From the NCBI GenBank assembly GCA_016790635.1, contig JAEUOR010000002.1, forward strand, positions 274,777-338,776: a stretch of DNA of 64,000 nucleotides, in the 5' to 3' direction. Under the pieces are notes generated by a model. The model had not been told where the DNA came from. It worked only from the letters and a program-made list of their open reading frames with translations, and did no database searches. Below are positions 465 through 9,426 of this stretch, one piece after another (the first letter of the stretch is position 1; each line of letters begins with the position of its first letter). Source of the DNA: Burkholderiales bacterium (GTDB lineage: Bacteria; Pseudomonadota; Gammaproteobacteria; Burkholderiales; JAEUOS01). The position numbers and the translations under genes were made by a program.

Positions 465-835
465 TGGTGGAGCCGGCGGGAATTGAACCCGCGTCCGCAA
501 GCCCTCCACAGCAAGTTCTACATGCGTATCCGGTCTATTTGATTTAACCGCTGCCTTAGCCGACAGGCAGGCCGGACAGCGGCGAGTCACCTTGGTTTAA
601 GCCGGCGCCAAGTAACCCGACGCCGGCCGATTCCCTCTGGATGACGCTACCGTGAGTTTTTGAGGCTCACTCCGGTCGAGGGAAGCACCGGTGTAGCGGC
701 TTCGCTAGTTTTTTAGGCTGCGAGAGCAAAACGCTCGTCGTTCGCGTTTAGGTTTTTGCGGTTGGATTTACGAGGTGACCACCCCTCGGCATGCCCTCAC
801 TGCTTTGTAACCCACGTCGAAACCGGATCGGCCCC
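465..835 (-). ncRNA. ssrA: tmRNA (transfer-messenger RNA)
   Basis: The minus strand begins GGGGCCGATCCGG and ends with a T-arm-like GGGTTCAATTCCCGC followed by the acceptor strand and an encoded CCA. The 7-bp acceptor stem GGGGCCG/CGGCTCC forms with one G-U pair. An internal reading frame at 745-713 encodes ANDERFALAA followed by TAA, the tag peptide typical of Burkholderiales. Length is 371 nt, normal for the one-piece form. The product rescues stalled ribosomes and marks the nascent chain for proteolysis. A possible promoter lies upstream on the minus strand, with TAGAAT at 882-877 and a weak -35 CTGATG 17 bp before it. Confidence 0.96.
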
Positions 836-3364: not shown

Positions 3365-3898
3365 CTACGCGCCCTGGCGCTGGATCATCGCAAGGATTTG
3401 TTCCACGGCCGTATCGGCGATCGCGGCCAGTTCGGCCGGCGTGCGGTTCTGGATCGGGTGCGGCACCCACACCAGGCCGGCGGCGAAGCCGAGCGCCTTC
3501 ATCTGCGCGTCGGCTGCCGCGCGGAACGCCTCGCTGGCGACGCCGCATCCGGGGATGCCGCGGCGATCCAGGGTCTGGAGGTCATGCAGACTGCATGACG
3601 TGCAGGACCCTCAGTCGGCCAGTGCCTCGATGACGACGTCGCAACGTTCGACGATGTCCTGGATGACCTGCTCGGGCGCGGGCTTGGTATGGGTCGGCTT
3701 GGCGAAACGCAGGAGCGTGAGCCCGCGCGCGGACAAGCGCGCCTCGATCGTGTCGAGGAACTCCTCGCTGCGTTCCTTGGAGATGGACAGGAGTCCGACG
3801 GTTGCGCGCGAGAGGTCGGCCGGCGGCGGGCGCCGGGCGCGCTGCGCCGCTGCGGTCTCCATGGTGGGATCTCGCATCGAATAGGCTTCCAGGTTCAT
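3365..3898 (-). CDS. UGSC-family selenoprotein (in-frame UGA at 3613-3611 read as Sec96)
   Basis: Read normally, this frame stops at TGA 3613-3611 after the residues DVVIEALAD. Read with that codon as selenocysteine it continues in frame for 81 more residues to TAG 3367-3365, giving GSCTSCSLHD immediately after the Sec and VWVPHPIQNRTPAEL further on. That is the UGSC family known from selenoproteome surveys, where Sec or Cys occupies the first position of [U/C]GSC. The product is 177 aa with U96, C99 and C102. A 7-bp hairpin with a 5-nt loop starts 11 nt after the UGA. The start ATG overlaps the stop of the thioredoxin-fold gene upstream (ATGA at 3895-3898). Complete selA, selB and selC genes lie 2.1-6 kb away. 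The reaction is unknown; a redox role is inferred from Sec and the nearby cysteines. Confidence 0.93.
3581..3599 (-). promoter_or_regulatory. bSECIS hairpin of the UGSC selenoprotein
   Basis: The minus-strand sequence GTCATGC-AGTCT-GCATGAC forms a perfect 7-bp stem with a 5-nt loop. It begins 11 nt after the UGA (spacer 3610-3600) and lies inside the coding sequence. Position and size match bacterial SECIS elements, where SelB binds a small apical loop; the E. coli fdhF loop GGUCU is close to AGUCU. Confidence 0.88.
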
Positions 3899-5319
3899 GT
3901 GCCGATCTCCGTGGATACGACTTGCACTTCTTGGTGGCGCCGTTGCGCGGTCCAGCCGCCGATGATAGCGGAGAACAATCCGCCTTCGCCGCCGGCGCGC
4001 ACGATGATGAGGCCGCCGGGATGGAACTTGTCGATCATCTCCTCGCCGCGCGACGCGTCGATTCCCATGCCAACCCCGCCCGCGCCTGCGACCAGGTCGC
4101 GCCCCGGGCGCCTCAGGGCCTGCCAGATCTCCGCCTCGATGCGTGCGCGGTCCCAGCCGCCCTGCTTGAAGATGGCGTAGTGATCGGGGGAGATCACCAG
4201 GAGCGCATGCGACCACTGCGCCTGCTTGGGATGACAGACCGCCCACAAGGCCATCGCCAGCGAGCGCGCCAGGCCCTCGGGGTCGCGCGACTTCTGCTCG
4301 GCGACGCCCTGTACCCCGTCGCCGTGGAAGAGTGTCACGGTGGATGATCCGCGCGGGTGGCCGCGGGCGACGTTGAGCGGCACCCAGTCCGGATCGGTTT
4401 CGTCCTCGGCAAAGCAAAACGTGTACTTGCCCGGGTTGCCCAGCACCGCCCGGTCGATCTCCTGCGGGCGGCCGCCGCCGACGTTGCGGATCACCAGCTG
4501 CAGCGCGCGGCCGATGGTGGCATTGGCGCGATTGCCCTGGCCGAGCGCATTGCCGGCCCAGTTCATGCCGATGCGTTTGCTGACCGGGCCGTTGACGATC
4601 ACCACCGGGCCCGAGAACCACAGCGTTGCCAACAGGCCGTGCATCGAGAATTCGGGTTTGAGCGCCGCCTCGATGGCGGCCAGGACGACAGGGAAGTATT
4701 CGGGGCGGCAACCGGCCATCACGGCGTTGATGGCGGCTTTCTCGATGGTGCACTCGGCCAGGTTGGGGGGAATCAGCCCGATGATCTCGTCGGGCTTGCG
4801 CGTGGTGCCGCCCAGCATGCGCGCGATGCGCAGGTCGGTTGGCGGGATCACCGGCAAGCCGTCGGTCCAGCCGCGGTCGTAGGCGACTTCCGCCGGATCG
4901 TCCATCGGGTCGACCTCGATTTTGCGCGAGGCCAGTTGCAAAGCGCCGAACCTGAGCGCCAGGCGCTCGGGCATGCCGGGCTCGACCGAGAGCGAGCCGC
5001 AACCGGGCCGCGACGGCGGCAGGTCGGGGCCGAGTCCGGTCAGGCCGCTGACCTTCTCCCAGTCTGAACGGTGCCATCCTTCAGCGCGTGCGGCCTCGCG
5101 ACCATCCTCGAGGCGGATCAGGGTCGGCACGATCTCGATCCTGAGGCGCCAGGACGTCTCGAGCCCGCGGTCATCCAGCGCGCCGCCGGCGGCCGCGGGA
5201 AAGGCGGGGTCGTCCTGGCAATGGAGCGCCAGCGGCAGGCGCTCTTTCAATTCGGCCAGCAACGGTTCGACCATCTGGCAGGTCTCGCAGTCGCGCTTGA
5301 CTACCACCACGTATTGCAT
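3895..5319 (-). CDS. Thioredoxin-fold protein fused to a large UGSC-associated domain
   Basis: A 474-residue protein. Residues 1-90 look like a thioredoxin/glutaredoxin domain: beta strand QYVVVVKRD, then CETC at 11-14 and a later VPTLIRLEDG resembling the cis-proline strand. From about residue 120 a separate domain begins with YDRGWTDGLPVIPPT and continues through EKAAINAVMAGCRPEYFP, NGPVSKRIGMN and GGEGGLFSAIIGGW. I recognise it only as a partner that accompanies UGSC-motif proteins; no enzyme name can be given. The ATG at 5319 has GGGAA 6 nt before it; an ATG at 5340 is possible. Its stop overlaps the UGSC start, so the two are translationally coupled and probably form one redox system, with the CxxC domain a candidate reductant for the selenoprotein. 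It is divergent from the peroxiredoxin-like selenoprotein, with 153 bp between. Confidence 0.72.
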   Translation of the reverse strand: MQYVVVVKRDCETCQMVEPLLAELKERLPLALHCQDDPAFPAAAGGALDDRGLETSWRLRIEIVPTLIRLEDGREAARAEGWHRSDWEKVSGLTGLGPDLPPSRPGCGSLSVEPGMPERLALRFGALQLASRKIEVDPMDDPAEVAYDRGWTDGLPVIPPTDLRIARMLGGTTRKPDEIIGLIPPNLAECTIEKAAINAVMAGCRPEYFPVVLAAIEAALKPEFSMHGLLATLWFSGPVVIVNGPVSKRIGMNWAGNALGQGNRANATIGRALQLVIRNVGGGRPQEIDRAVLGNPGKYTFCFAEDETDPDWVPLNVARGHPRGSSTVTLFHGDGVQGVAEQKSRDPEGLARSLAMALWAVCHPKQAQWSHALLVISPDHYAIFKQGGWDRARIEAEIWQALRRPGRDLVAGAGGVGMGIDASRGEEMIDKFHPGGLIIVRAGGEGGLFSAIIGGWTAQRRHQEVQVVSTEIGT

Positions 5320-5472: not shown

Positions 5473-5943
5473 ATGACTCAGAAACTGGGTATCGGCGCGG
5501 AATTCCCGGCGATGCGCATTCCCCTGGTCGGCGGCGGCGAGATGTCGCTGCCCGACGGCCTCGAGGGCAAGTACAAGGTCATCCTCTTTTATCGCGGGCA
5601 CTGGTGACCCTACTGCGTCCGGCAGTTGGCCGGATTTGCCAAGATCAAGCCCGAACTCGACGCGCTCGGCGTCGGCCTTTTCACGGCCAGCATCGACGGA
5701 CCGGACAAGGCCGGGGAAGTGGCCGCCAAGCTCAACTTCCCGGTCGGGCATAGCGTCACCCGCGCTCATGCCGACCTGATCGGCGCATGGTGGGAAGATC
5801 GCCGCTCGATCATCCAGCCTTCCGAATTCATCCTCGGGCCGGACAACAAGGTCGTCGGTTCATCCTATAGCGACGGGCCGCTCGGGCGCATCGACGCGGC
5901 CGACGTGGTGCGCCTGGTCACCTTCTACAACTCGCGCAAGTAG
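5473..5943 (+). CDS. Peroxiredoxin-like selenoprotein with UxxC motif (UGA at 5605-5607 read as Sec45)
   Basis: Translation from ATG 5473 gives a thioredoxin-fold AhpC/TSA-like start (GIGAEFPAMRIPL), then VILFYRGHW, an in-frame TGA, and PYCVRQLAGFAKIKPEL, with conserved sequence to TAG 5941. GHW-[T/C/U]-PYC is the active-site region of peroxiredoxin-like proteins, and the TGA occupies the catalytic position, giving U45-P-Y-C48. The full product is 156 aa, a normal length, while termination at the TGA would leave 44 residues without an active site. A SECIS-like hairpin follows 10 nt after the UGA. A GAAAGG ribosome site precedes the ATG and a strong terminator follows the stop. It probably reduces peroxides or organic hydroperoxides; the substrate is not shown. 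Confidence 0.93.
5618..5634 (+). promoter_or_regulatory. bSECIS hairpin of the peroxiredoxin-like selenoprotein
   Basis: TCCGGC-AGTTG-GCCGGA forms a perfect 6-bp stem and 5-nt loop, 10 nt after the UGA at 5605-5607. Together with the element at 3581-3599 it gives a loop consensus of AGUYK, which would be the local SelB recognition signal. Confidence 0.85.
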
Positions 5944-5998: not shown

Positions 5999-6093
5999 TG
6001 GCGGAAGTGAGTGGGAGTCGAACCCACCAGGAACGTCTGACGCCCCTCACCGGGTTTGAAGTCCGGGCGCCCCACCGGGGACGATTCTCTTCC
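5999..6093 (-). tRNA. selC: tRNA-Sec, anticodon TCA
   Basis: The 95-nt minus-strand gene begins GGAAGAGAATCG and ends CACTTCCGCCA with CCA encoded. The anticodon TCA is at 6059-6057 within GGACTTCAAACCC. It has the extended acceptor stem, a long variable arm and the T-arm GGTTCGACTCC typical of bacterial tRNA-Sec, and the same overall length as E. coli selC. The 8-bp acceptor stem has one A-A mismatch at position 6. It lies 19 nt downstream of selB on the same strand, so it may be processed from the selAB transcript. It inserts selenocysteine at UGA codons together with SelB. Confidence 0.97.
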
Positions 6094-6112: not shown

Positions 6113-8026
6113 CTACCCGGCCTGTCCCTGGTCGGCGCCGAAGACCTGCTCTGCGCTCTTCATCACCAGGCGCTCGTTGCCCAGGCGGCGCGTGAGCCCC
6201 AGCCGGTCGAAGGCTTCCAGCACCTCGATGGCCAGGTTGCGGCCCAGGCCCGAGCGGTCGCGAAACTGTGCGGCGGTGAAGCGCTGCTTGCGGTCGGCGC
6301 CGCCCAAGGCTTCGGCGTGCGCAGCGAGCGTGCGCGCCGCGGCCGGCGGCATGAAACGCTCTTCGCCGATGCGCACCAGGCGACGCATCTGCGCCATGCG
6401 GCCCTGCAGCGACTTGACCTGCCGCACCGGCAGCTTGAGGCCGGCGGCGATCTCCGCGCAGGTCGGCGCCTGCGCGGGTTCATTCTTGGAAAAGGCCGCG
6501 ATGCGGCGCGCAAGCGCCTCGTCGGCATCGTTCAGGCCGCTGTCGTGTGTCGCCAGCGCCAGCGCCGCGCCATGCCGCTTGAGGCTGCCGTCGGCCAGCA
6601 GGTCGGCGGCCAGCACGGCCAGTGCGTCGCGCTTGACGCGCAGCGCAGTGCCATGCAAGAGGCGGTCTTCGGGCACGCCGGGCGAGGCCGGTGAGCGCGC
6701 GTGCCAGGCGGCAAGCGCGGCCAGCGCAGCACTCTTCGCCGCGTTCCAGTGCTTGGTCTCGAAAGCGACGGACCCGGCCACGCGCGCACCGGCGGTTGCA
6801 AGCAGACGCTGCACGTGCGCAGCATCCAGGTTGCGCGCGCGCGCGAAGTCGGACGGTTCCAGGCCCGACGGCGAGACCGCCAGCGCCGCGCGCAGCGCCT
6901 CTCCGTGATCGGCGCGGTCGAGCGCATGCAGCAGCGCCAGGCGTGCCGGCCGCGCGCGGCCGCGCGGCGGCGCGAAGATGTCGATGACCCGCGCGCCGCC
7001 CAGGGTGCGGCGCGCCGACTGGTCGCGCAGGATGGCGCGGTCGCCGTGGCAGGCCTGCAGCGGGCGGTCGAGCACCAGTTGCGCCAGTCCGGTCTCGCCG
7101 GGTGCGAGGCTGGCGGCTTCCAGCAGCGCGACGCGTCCGGTCACATCCGCCGCTCCCAGGTGCACGTGCAGCGGGGTCCAGTGGGCCAGGGGTCGCGCCT
7201 CGCCGGCCAGTACCTGCACCATGACGTCGATGCGCGTGACCGCGGGTGCGACATCCGGCGCGACGATCCAGTCGCCGCGGCTGATGGCGGCGGTCGCACC
7301 GGCCAGGTTGAGCGCGCAGCGCTCGCCGGCGACCGCGCGCGGGGCGCCGCGGTCGTGCGCGCGCAGGCCGCGCACGCGTGCGGCGGCGCCGGCCGGCCGC
7401 GCTTCGACCATGTCGCCGGCCGCGACGCTGCCGGAGAGCACCGTGCCAGTCACGATCAGTCCGGCACCCGGCAGCGTGAAGGCGCGGTCCACGGTCATGC
7501 GCAGGTGGTCGCCTGCGCGCGCGCTGCGCCCGGCCATGGCCTGCAGATGCGCGCGCAGCGGCTCCACCCCGGCCCCGGTCAATGCGGACAAAGGGAAGAC
7601 CGGTACCAGGCCGGCACCATGGGCCGCGAGGAGCGTGCTCACCTCGCCTGCCGCAACTTCGGCGCGCGCCGGTTCGACCGCATCGATCTTGGTCAGGGCG
7701 ACCGCGCCGACCGGCACGCCGATGAGTTCCAGGATGGCCAGGTGCTCGCGCGTCTGCGGCATGGGCCCGTCGTCGGCCGCCACGACCAGCAGCGCGCAGT
7801 CGATGCCGGTCATGCCGGCCAGCATGTTGTGCACGAAGTGCTCGTGCCCCGGCACGTCGACAAAGCCGATGCGCCGCCCGTTGGCGGTCTCGAGATGGGC
7901 GAAGCCCAGGTCGATGGTCATGCCGCGGCGCTTTTCCTCGGGCAGGCGATCGGTGTCGACGCCGGTCAGCTGCCGGATCAGCGAGGTCTTGCCGTGGTCG
8001 ACATGTCCCGCGGTGGCGATGATCAC
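6113..8026 (-). CDS. selB: Selenocysteine-specific elongation factor SelB
   Basis: A 637-residue translational GTPase that carries Sec-tRNA to UGA codons by binding the SECIS hairpin. The EF-Tu-like G domain has GHVDHGKT at residues 7-14, DVPGHE at 57-62 and TKID at 112-115. Domains II and III follow. The C-terminal part from about residue 370 shows the repeated winged-helix pattern that binds SECIS RNA, ending in [22 protein letters not shown]. The start is GTG 8026 ([13 protein letters not shown], as in other SelB proteins), overlapping the selA stop as GTGA. Length and domain order are normal, and no lesion is seen. Confidence 0.97.
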
Positions 8027-9426
8027 GATGCGTGCACCGGCAGGTCGAGCTGATCCCACTGCGCGGCGAAGGCGGCCTCGTCTTCCAGGCAGCGCAGGTC
8101 CAGCCACAGGCTGTCTTCGGCGATGCGGCCGATGACCGGTACCGGCAGGGCGCGCAGCGCCGCGTGCAGCCGCTCGAGCGCCTTGCCGCGCCCGCGTGCG
8201 GCCAGGGGCGACAGGACCAGCGCCGCGCTGGGCAGGAGCTTGCCCGGCTGCGCGCCCGAGCCGATCTCGCTGGCGCAGTCGGCGACCGCGACCTGGGCGT
8301 TCTGGGCAAGGGCGTGCGCGACCGCCGGCAGCACGCGTCGTGCGAGGGCGCGTATCTCGTCCTGCCCTCGCGTGAGGAGCCGCAAGCTCGGCAGGCGCCG
8401 GCCCAGGCTGTCGGGGTCCAGATGCAGGCGCAGCACGGCGCCCAGCGCGGCCAGCGTGATCTTGTCCACGCGCAGCGCGCGCTTGAGCGGATTCTTGTTG
8501 ATCCGCGCGATCAGGTCCGCGCGCCCGGCGATGATGCCGGCCTGCGGGCCGCCCATGAGCTTGTCGGCGCTGAAGGTGACCAGGTCGGCGCCGGCGGCGA
8601 GCGCGCCGCGCACGGTCGGCTCGCGCGGCAGGCCCCAGGCCGACAGGTCGAGGAGCGCCCCGGCGCCCAGGTCGTTGATGAACGGTACGGCGCGCTCGCG
8701 GCACAGGGCCGCCAGTTCCGGCTCGGGCACCGCGGCGGTGAATCCCGCGATCACGTAGTTGCTGGCATGCGCCTTCATGACCGCGCCGGTGCCGGTGTGG
8801 ATGGCGCCGGCGTAGTCGCGCAGGTGGGTGCGGTTGGTGGTGCCGACCTCGACCAGCTTGCAGCCGGCGCGGCGCATGATCTCGGGCAGGCGAAACGACC
8901 CGCCGATCTCGATCAGTTCGCCGCGCGACACCGGCACCTCGCGGCGCGCGGCCAGCGCGTTGAGCGCGAGCAGGACCGCGGCGGCATTGTTGTTGACCAC
9001 CGTCGCCGATTCGGCGCCGGTCAGGTCGATGATCAGTTGCAGTACATGGTCGTCGCGTTCGCCGCGCGCGCCGCGCGCCAGGTCGAACTCGAGGTCGCAG
9101 GCGCCGGCGGCGGCGGCCATCGCCTCGAGCGCCTCGCGCGGCAGCGGCGCGCGTCCCAGGTTGGTGTGCAGCACCGTGCCGGTCAGGTTGAAGACGCGGC
9201 GCGGCGCCGGCGCGAAGCGCTTCTCGAGACTTTGCCCGCAGGCGGCCAGGAGTGCGGCTGCGTCGCGCGGCGCCGCGCCGCGCGCCAGTTCGGCGCGCAT
9301 GGCATCCAGTTCGGCGCGCAGCGCTGCCAGCAGTGCGGTGCGGCCGAAGCGCTCGATCAGCGCCAGGGCGTCGGCGTGCGCGGCGACGCTGTCGACCGAG
9401 GGCGGGCGCGGCGCGGCGCTCTTCAT
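8023..9426 (-). CDS. selA: L-seryl-tRNA(Sec) selenium transferase SelA
   Basis: A 467-residue PLP enzyme that converts Ser-tRNA(Sec) to Sec-tRNA(Sec) using selenophosphate. Visible family features are [20 protein letters not shown] (residues 76-95), the NNNAAAVLL stretch near 145-153, and [12 protein letters not shown] with K289 as the PLP-binding lysine. Length matches SelA. The ATG at 9426-9424 shares its first base with the last base of the upstream DUF455 stop (TGATG), and its own stop overlaps the selB start, so translation is coupled on both sides. Confidence 0.97.

What the first reader, a model, noticed from the sequence alone, without database searches (positions are those of the whole stretch)
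3365..5319. UGSC selenoprotein coupled to a thioredoxin-fold partner: a selenium-dependent redox pair of unknown reaction
Seen: a frame ending at UGA 3613-3611 continues for 81 conserved-looking codons, giving U96-G-S-C-T-S-C; the UGA is followed by a perfect hairpin; the start overlaps the stop of a 474-aa protein with CETC and a large domain found beside UGSC proteins. Known: UGSC-family selenoproteins were found in selenoproteome and metagenome surveys but have no assigned reaction. Inferred: CETC reduces the Sec protein and the large domain supplies the substrate site.
Basis: partly seen in the sequence, partly recalled or inferred. Interest (0 to 1): 0.95.

Follow-up and report, generated by a model that had tools for sequence, protein, structure and literature searches.

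The report
Selenium enzyme pair resembling proline reductase
This stretch of a bacterial genome encodes a protein of the known UGSC family, whose in-frame stop codon is very likely read as selenocysteine, overlapping the gene of a partner with a predicted thioredoxin-like domain and a conserved domain of unknown function; distant sequence similarity suggests that the two would work together like the selenium enzymes that break bonds in proline and glycine, though their reaction has not been tested.

Summary
A UGSC-family protein (PF24696, NF041046) continues through UGA 3613-3611 (minus strand); its post-UGA half is conserved in 39 aligned homologues. The codon is TGA in 70, TAG in 2 and Cys in 2 of 74 named-genome homologues. 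The two TAG genomes have a CUA-anticodon tRNA-Sec; in the two Cys genomes the tRNA-Sec hits are tRNA-Ser. The hairpin passes a synonymous-codon control. tRNA-Sec, SelB and SelA lie beside it. UGSC selenoproteins, including UAG-Sec ones, are already published.

Added here: a predicted model of UGSC is Rossmann/flavodoxin-like, not thioredoxin-like, and a 118-sequence profile matches the D-proline reductase selenoprotein PrdB with Sec on Sec (hhalign P 1.1e-6; 60 shuffles all below half its score; other tests weaker). The partner's large domain accompanies 81 of 85 UGSC domains (34 fused) but shows no relation to PrdA. One genome carries 24 UGSC matches with in-frame TGA; TctC receptors often sit beside such modules.

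Best reading: a PrdB-like selenol attacks a substrate held by the large domain, and the thioredoxin-like domain re-reduces it. Untested.

The parts
3365..3898 (-). UGSC-family selenoprotein gene, 177 aa with Sec96 (stop 3365-3367); U96-G-S-C99-T-S-C102
   Evidence: Read-through ORF; PF24696 E 5e-38 and NF041046 133 bits across the UGA; alignment A2 of 40 sequences
3611..3613 (-). In-frame UGA, Sec96
   Evidence: Codon TGA; homologous codon TGA 70, TAG 2, TGC 2 of 74 read in named loci; TAG genomes have tRNA-Sec with CUA anticodon
3570..3611 (-). SECIS-like stem-loop after the UGA; 8-bp apical stem with 3-nt loop GUC, the loop 19 nt after the UGA
   Evidence: Fold -21.1 kcal/mol, z -3.5; lowest 3.5% of synonymous variants
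3895..5319 (-). Partner gene, 474 aa: thioredoxin-like domain plus conserved large domain; stop overlaps the UGSC start (ATGA)
5041..5319 (-). Predicted thioredoxin-like domain of the partner, residues 1-93, with C11-E-T-C14 (codons 5289-5287 and 5280-5278)
3898..4902 (-). Conserved large domain of the partner, residues ~140-474; D153, A196, G203, G244, P245, R271, N279, E305, G320 never varied in the 89-90 rows examined; C204 (codon 4710-4708) in 81 of 89
   Evidence: Alignment A1, deep alignment of 91 rows
5473..5943 (+). Second selenoprotein, AhpC/TSA-type, GHW-U-PYC, in-frame UGA 5605-5607
   Evidence: AhpC-TSA E 2e-17, Redoxin E 7e-10; frame
5999..6093 (-). tRNA-Sec, anticodon UCA
   Evidence: ARAGORN
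6113..8026 (-). SelB (Sec-specific elongation factor), GTG start
   Evidence: GTP_EFTU E 9.5e-36, Beta-barrel_SelB E 1.5e-29, SelB-wing_3 E 4.3e-13; coordinates
8023..9426 (-). SelA (L-seryl-tRNA(Sec) selenium transferase)
   Evidence: PF03841 E 8e-149, coordinates

Best explanation
The window encodes a UGSC-family protein whose in-frame UGA is very likely read as selenocysteine, and its overlapping partner gene would supply both a substrate-binding domain and a thioredoxin-like domain, so that the two are predicted to form one selenium-dependent reductase that works like D-proline and glycine reductase. Steps shown: the conserved frame across the UGA; codon/tRNA agreement in homologues; genetic pairing or fusion with the large domain; Sec-on-Sec profile match to PrdB. 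Steps inferred: Sec96, at the N-terminus of a helix after the third strand of a predicted Rossmann-like fold, is a nucleophile that attacks a polarised C-X (C-N, C-S, C-halogen or similar) centre of a small, probably carboxylated substrate bound by the large domain (Arg271, Asn279 and Glu305 never vary in the rows examined); Cys99 resolves the Se-adduct to a selenosulfide; the CETC thioredoxin-like domain, tied to the large domain, re-reduces it at the expense of NAD(P)H through a thioredoxin reductase. The substrate is unknown and probably differs between paralogues.
For: Sec: PF24696/NF041046 across the UGA; Cys/Sec alignment; 74 named codons; UAG with CUA tRNA-Sec in Blastococcus and Geodermatophilus, UCA in Pseudonocardia and Pseudohongiella, and the above-cut-off tRNA-Sec hits of the two Cys genomes called tRNA-Ser (37, 55, 57, 58, 133); synonymous-codon hairpin control. 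Pairing: 81 of 85 UGSC domains (found by my own profile in 80 stretches fetched around PF24696 hits of 12 of 18 hit genomes) within 800 bp of the large domain on the same strand, 34 fused; 75 of 80 named loci found by the partner also hold a UGSC gene, in L141 and L149 divergent and in L176 about 7 kb away. PrdB relation: deep UGSC profile vs 9 PrdB/GRDB-like proteins, hhalign P 1.1e-6, probability 91%, score 48.9 against a maximum of 22.1 in 60 column shuffles and 20.2 reversed; with five motif columns masked still P 1.1e-4 in the same register; 8 of 9 single PrdB/GRDB-like proteins outscore a pool of 1012 called proteins except four rows that lie on UGSC genes, same strand; Pfam's UGSC model gives sub-threshold hits on 5 of 9 (best E 0.0031; in member 1, E 0.063, PrdB 132-175 on model 71-117). 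Fold: five alternating strand/helix units, pLDDT 91.6; structural neighbours TIR, flavodoxin, receiver and PurE types. Context: a TctC receptor directly next to 33 of 88 modules; own-genome operons with CoA transferases and FAA hydrolase, and with a 305-aa pyridine-nucleotide-disulfide oxidoreductase plus a Pyr_redox-AIRS (NDH-SelD-like) protein.
Against: PF07355 (GRDB) does not hit the window protein at E<=10; but it also fails, at E<=0.001, on an own-genome protein that the PrdB profile finds strongly. The first, shallow comparison gave only 29% probability (P 0.0006). Masking the motif lowers the probability from 91% to 56%. In the reverse direction, with the nine-row PrdB profile as query, no single UGSC protein outscored the top pool row (that own-genome PrdB-like protein); the best five of 40 beat the next row (31.27), 23 of 40 lie above the 99th percentile, the rest do not. 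In one search other families reach similar sub-threshold levels on the PrdB set (Asparaginase 3 of 9, best E 0.0016; Thioredoxin_3 3 of 9, 0.0065), so that hit alone proves little. The large domain shows no similarity to PrdA/PrdD (four and two to four sequences, shallow; GrdE not compared), so pyruvoyl chemistry cannot be assumed. No solved GRDB protein was found to superpose. TctC is very common in these genomes (at least 127 in each of six) and the enrichment near modules is modest (59 of 281 vs 63 of 577, odds ratio 2.2, p 1e-4, genes of one locus not independent); named thioredoxin-type loci had TctC in only 1 of 58 neighbours. C204 is lost in 8 of 89 large domains. No substrate, activity or complex was tested.
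Confidence: 0.55

Rival explanations
1. A thiol/selenol peroxidase or disulfide reductase: UGSC detoxifies peroxides or reduces disulfides using the thioredoxin-like domain as donor, and the large domain is only a scaffold. Sec96/Cys99 would cycle as a selenosulfide.
For: UxxC motif; thioredoxin-like domain with CETC; an AhpC-type selenoprotein and the Sec machinery are next door; an OsmC gene is in the C6 operon of the own genome; PMC2398784 assumed a thioredoxin-like fold.
Against: Predicted fold is not thioredoxin; the large domain has many residues that never vary and accompanies 81 of 85 UGSC domains; many paralogues per genome, and neighbours such as transport receptors, CoA transferases and a hydrolase, look catabolic rather than protective.
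Confidence: 0.2
2. UGSC is an electron-delivering or carrier subunit (like GrdA or a selenium/sulfur carrier): the large domain is the actual catalyst, acting through its Arg/Asn/Glu and the common Cys204, and the Sec protein only delivers electrons or a chalcogen.
For: Large-domain R271, N279, E305 in 90 of 90 rows and C204 in 81 of 89; one fused own-genome copy sits beside a Pyr_redox-AIRS (NDH-SelD-like) gene.
Against: The Sec-on-Sec match is to PrdB, the catalytic selenoprotein; GrdA itself was not compared. Sec/Cys96 is kept in 117 of 117 aligned rows and Cys99 in 115 (111), which does not by itself separate the two readings.
Confidence: 0.18
3. The UGA is an ordinary stop and the downstream conservation belongs to a pseudogene or a separate coupled ORF.
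For: Only that many database entries of the family end before the UGA (lengths of about 97-109 aa), which is how gene callers behave.
Against: Same-frame conservation over 81 codons in 39 homologues, Cys in its place, UAG with a CUA tRNA-Sec, Sec machinery in the window, hairpin control; published UAG-Sec UGSC proteins (PMC5330540, passage seen).
Confidence: 0.02

Closest known systems
UGSC family (seleno)protein, PF24696 / NF041046 ('UGSC-containing protein', PMC2398784)
   Same: Profile match above curated cut-offs across the UGA, U/C-GSC motif, Sec in most homologues examined, pairing with a conserved domain (the paper reports a UGSC/Unknown_1 fusion)
   Different: Nothing in the gene itself. 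Added here are the predicted fold (not thioredoxin-like), the PrdB relation, the counted pairing and the paralogue counts
PrdB of D-proline reductase and GrdB of glycine reductase (GRDB, PF07355)
   Same: UG[ST]C at the N-terminus of a helix (predicted) followed by LE..GIP; hhalign P 1.1e-6 with Sec aligned on Sec (PrdB and GRDB-like sequences only, no GrdB in the set); a separate large partner; in glycine reductase thioredoxin supplies electrons (PMC3091704, passages seen)
   Different: PF07355 does not reach the window protein; the partner shows no similarity to PrdA/PrdD; found in lineages such as Pseudonocardia and Geodermatophilus (names; that these are aerobes is recalled)
Thioredoxin-like domains (Trx, TlpA/ResA, DsbF)
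   Same: Partner residues 1-93: predicted thioredoxin fold with C-x-T-C
   Different: No Pfam thioredoxin hit for the window protein; fused to the large domain
FarB/FarE of Cloacibacillus (fluoroacetate dehalorespiration, PMC10838667, abstract and passages seen)
   Same: Precedent, proposed by its authors, for a GrdB-type selenoprotein serving another substrate with a partner that lacks the pyruvoyl-forming cysteines
   Different: GrdB/GrdE homologues in anaerobes; no sequence comparison of UGSC with FarB was made

Membership tests
UGSC family (PF24696, NF041046) | Profile match above the curated cut-off over the whole domain | tested here: met
   131.4 bits (cut-off 25) residues 8-173; 133 bits (cut-off 125) residues 32-172
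UGSC family (PF24696, NF041046) | Sec or Cys in the U/C-G-S-C motif | tested here: met
   U96GSC99; U/C at this column in 117 of 117 other aligned rows
Bacterial selenoprotein | In-frame UGA, SECIS-like hairpin, Cys homologues, Sec machinery in the genome | tested here: met
   decoding itself was not observed
GRDB (PrdB/GrdB, PF07355) | Match to the PF07355 profile | tested here: not met
   No hit at E<=10
GRDB (PrdB/GrdB, PF07355) | UxxC at the same place in a profile-profile comparison | tested here: met
   hhalign P 1.1e-6, Sec on Sec; masked P 1.1e-4; weaker in shallow or reverse tests
D-proline / glycine reductase | Partner recognisably homologous to PrdA (pyruvoyl subunit) | tested here: not met
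   Large-domain profile vs 4 PrdA, 2 PrdD and 8 PrdA/D/E-type sequences: hhalign probability below 0.1%; GrdE not compared; a remote relation is not excluded
D-proline / glycine reductase | Reductive cleavage of an amino acid | not testable with these tools
   Needs enzymology
Thioredoxin fold (for UGSC itself) | Thioredoxin topology around the UxxC | tested here: not met
   AF2 model (pLDDT 91.6) shows five alternating strand-helix units; a predicted model, not a solved one
Thioredoxin-like (partner residues 1-93) | Thioredoxin fold with CxxC | tested here: met
Thioredoxin-like (partner residues 1-93) | Significant Pfam thioredoxin match | tested here: not met
   None for the window protein; PF13098 in 2 of 23 members of A1 at E<=1

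The most novel reading that the evidence does not exclude
UGSC proteins and their large-domain partners are a third, unrecognised branch of selenocysteine reductases beside glycine and proline reductase: an aerobic, modular family in which one PrdB-like Sec subunit was joined to a new substrate domain and multiplied to two dozen copies per genome, each cleaving a different small acid brought in by its own TctC-type receptor, with the window's thioredoxin-fused form as the self-sufficient version linked to the Sec machinery.
Probability: 0.3. Interest if true: 0.9.

Novelty: new variant of a known kind. Interest (0 to 1): 0.72.

Why it matters
The UGSC family has been listed in selenoproteome surveys since at least 2008 (PMC2398784, passages) without a reaction, and was supposed to be thioredoxin-like. 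Tying it to PrdB and to a fixed partner gives a concrete, testable enzyme class, explains why the genes come in pairs or fusions, and points to bacteria with up to 24 predicted selenoprotein genes of one family. If right, selenol-based bond cleavage, known from anaerobic amino-acid fermenters, would also be at work in many aerobic soil and water bacteria on carbon compounds not yet known.

Tried and rejected
Rejected: thioredoxin fold for UGSC. No signal: large domain against PrdA/PrdD and against PrdB. Inconclusive: fold of the large domain; Foldseek's first non-thioredoxin rows (class I fumarase, Toblerone cyclic amide hydrolases, E 6e-4 to 7e-3) have query TM-scores of 0.13-0.24 and rmsd 11-18, so I do not use them; VIA-align's rows cover only the thioredoxin part. 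Inconclusive: PDB sequence searches with both proteins and profiles. Led nowhere: PF07355 in 56 genomes rang nowhere, controls included, so it says nothing about absence; the own genome was among them and does hold a PrdB-profile-like gene with in-frame TGA just outside the window, on which Pfam gives no hit at E<=0.001. My first profile scans of the AhpC-type protein used a wrong frame and were corrected. In one search the SelB query was empty, so its SelB count of 0 is not a result. The gene calls behind searches are from my own simple caller.

Literature: searches. 'UGSC' and 'proline reductase' occur together in 6 papers; in the passages that I read of four of them none links them; PMC9402790 and PMC7435645 were seen only in listings. 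Of PMC1088965, PMC3091704, PMC5330540 and PMC12013277 I saw passages, of PMC10838667 the abstract and passages. UAG-Sec UGSC proteins are known (PMC5330540, passage, citing its ref. 56, which I did not see). No paper on a paralogue expansion of UGSC appeared in those listings, which is not proof that none exists; PMC13188914 mentions a Methylomirabilota assembly with 63 predicted selenoprotein genes whose families I did not see.

Full report
1. The observation. On the minus strand, 3898-3365 encodes 177 residues with one in-frame TGA at 3613-3611 (residue 96), giving U-G-S-C-T-S-C. The upstream gene 5319-3895 encodes 474 residues with C11-E-T-C14, and its stop overlaps the UGSC start as ATGA. 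Read through, the protein matches the curated UGSC models across the UGA (PF24696 E 5e-38; NF041046 133 bits against a cut-off of 125). Gene callers cut many relatives at the UGA: many of the 120 listed of 219 database hits are about 97-109 aa long, and the three such entries that I printed (P0007, P0016, P0064) end in EALAD or EGLAD.

2. Is the UGA selenocysteine? Forty aligned sequences keep the region after the UGA (the motif C96-G-S-C99, C102, D106, F125, H147, P148 are invariant, U written as C), and it is closer to the window's (53%) than the region before (47%). Of the 5 without UGSC, three end within or just after the partner and two (L180, L182) do not; in L141 and L149 the UGSC gene is divergent and in L176 about 7 kb away. 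The two TAG loci are Blastococcus and Geodermatophilus, and the tRNA-Sec of both genomes has anticodon CUA; Pseudonocardia and Pseudohongiella (TGA) have UCA; the above-cut-off tRNA-Sec hits in the two genomes with Cys are tRNA-Ser (six genomes examined in all). UAG-Sec in this family is already published (PMC5330540, passage). The hairpin was tested against synonymous-codon variants: mean z -1.39 in 70 named TGA genes and -1.21 in 76 TGA genes of the own and same-order genomes, with 29 and 25 in the lowest 5%; 0 of 3 Cys and 1 of 2 TAG genes are (77 of the 85 domains of the second set had a readable motif). The window holds tRNA-Sec, SelB, SelA and a second selenoprotein of AhpC type.

4. The PrdB link. 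A shallow comparison was weak (29%, P 0.0006). With 118 UGSC sequences the probability is 91%, P 1.1e-6, score 48.9, Sec on Sec; 60 column shuffles reached at most 22.1 and the reversed profile 20.2. Against single proteins, 8 of 9 PrdB/GRDB-like sequences outscore the whole pool of 1012 called proteins except four rows, and these four lie on UGSC genes of the same strand; the ninth (L202) has 14 rows at or above it. Masking five motif columns leaves P 1.1e-4 (56%) in the same register. Pfam's UGSC model gives sub-threshold hits on 5 of 9 PrdB/GRDB-like proteins, best E 0.0031, but Asparaginase (3 of 9, 0.0016) and Thioredoxin_3 (3 of 9, 0.0065) do so too. In reverse, with the nine-row PrdB profile as query, the top pool row is a PrdB-like gene of the own genome; the best five of 40 single UGSC proteins beat the next row (31.27) and 23 of 40 exceed the 99th percentile, 17 do not. 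PF07355 itself does not reach UGSC. I read this as probable distant common descent, not membership.

6. Expansion and context. 18 of 150 same-order genomes (own included) have a PF24696 match, 17 over the cut-off. The own genome has three, all with TGA. G055 has 26 matches, of which 24 are over the cut-off and each of those carries one in-frame TGA; G140 has 24, of which 23 carry a TGA (that each TGA is at the motif was not checked one by one). These are unnamed assemblies of 70-340 contigs, so strains may be mixed. Among 76 operon-like neighbours of such modules (76 of 82 listed were scanned), 25 are TctC receptors. Modules with a TctC directly beside them: 33 of 88; near genes 59 of 281 against far genes 63 of 577. 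In the own genome one module sits with two CoA transferases, TctC, OsmC and FAA hydrolase, another with TctC, a 305-aa pyridine-nucleotide-disulfide oxidoreductase and a Pyr_redox-AIRS protein (NDH-SelD-like). Neighbours of the thioredoxin-fused type differ: SelA 7, thiolase 7, alpha/beta hydrolase 6 and TctC 1 of 58 scanned (58 of 68 listed), and 12 of 80 loci show SelA and/or tRNA-Sec in the fetched flank. So the transport link rests on the paralogues, not on the window's own type.

7. Mechanism. By analogy with D-proline reductase as described in PMC3091704 (passages), where the selenol is proposed to attack carbon, a selenoether forms, a Cys releases it as a selenosulfide and an electron donor restores it, I propose: large domain binds substrate, Sec96 attacks, Cys99 resolves, the thioredoxin-like domain re-reduces. 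FarB/FarE (PMC10838667) are a proposed precedent for a GrdB-type system serving another substrate without pyruvoyl. Every chemical step here is inferred. Overall the gene is an ordinary member of a known family; the variant lies in the class that I propose for that family.

Noticed in passing
window 5473-5943 (+): Second selenoprotein gene of AhpC/TSA type with in-frame UGA at 5605-5607 (GHW-U-PYC), between the UGSC pair and tRNA-Sec; its own downstream fold is not better than shuffles.
   Followed up: partly
L028:2515-3483 (-), G000:C18:270514-271482, about 3.3 kb before the window start: A PrdB-like gene with an in-frame TGA in LLVPL-U-PVCHQ (hhalign 99.8% to the PrdB profile for the part before the UGA; no Pfam hit at E<=0.001); so this genome may carry both UGSC and PrdB-like selenoproteins.
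   Followed up: partly
L027:5317-12846: Own-genome gene row: TctC, a 305-aa pyridine-nucleotide-disulfide oxidoreductase, a fused USTC-type UGSC-large-domain protein whose Cys204 is Ala, a Pyr_redox-AIRS (NDH-SelD-like) protein and a MatE transporter.
   Followed up: partly
genomes G055, G140, G005, G131, G100: 17-26 UGSC matches per genome, nearly all with TGA: a large expansion of one selenoprotein family.
   Followed up: partly
L139:4-432 (+): A divergent UGSC-like domain with C-S-T-C beside another large domain in a betaproteobacterial contig.
   Followed up: no
window 465-835 (-): tmRNA with tag ANDERFALAA, which suggests a betaproteobacterium (recalled).
   Followed up: no
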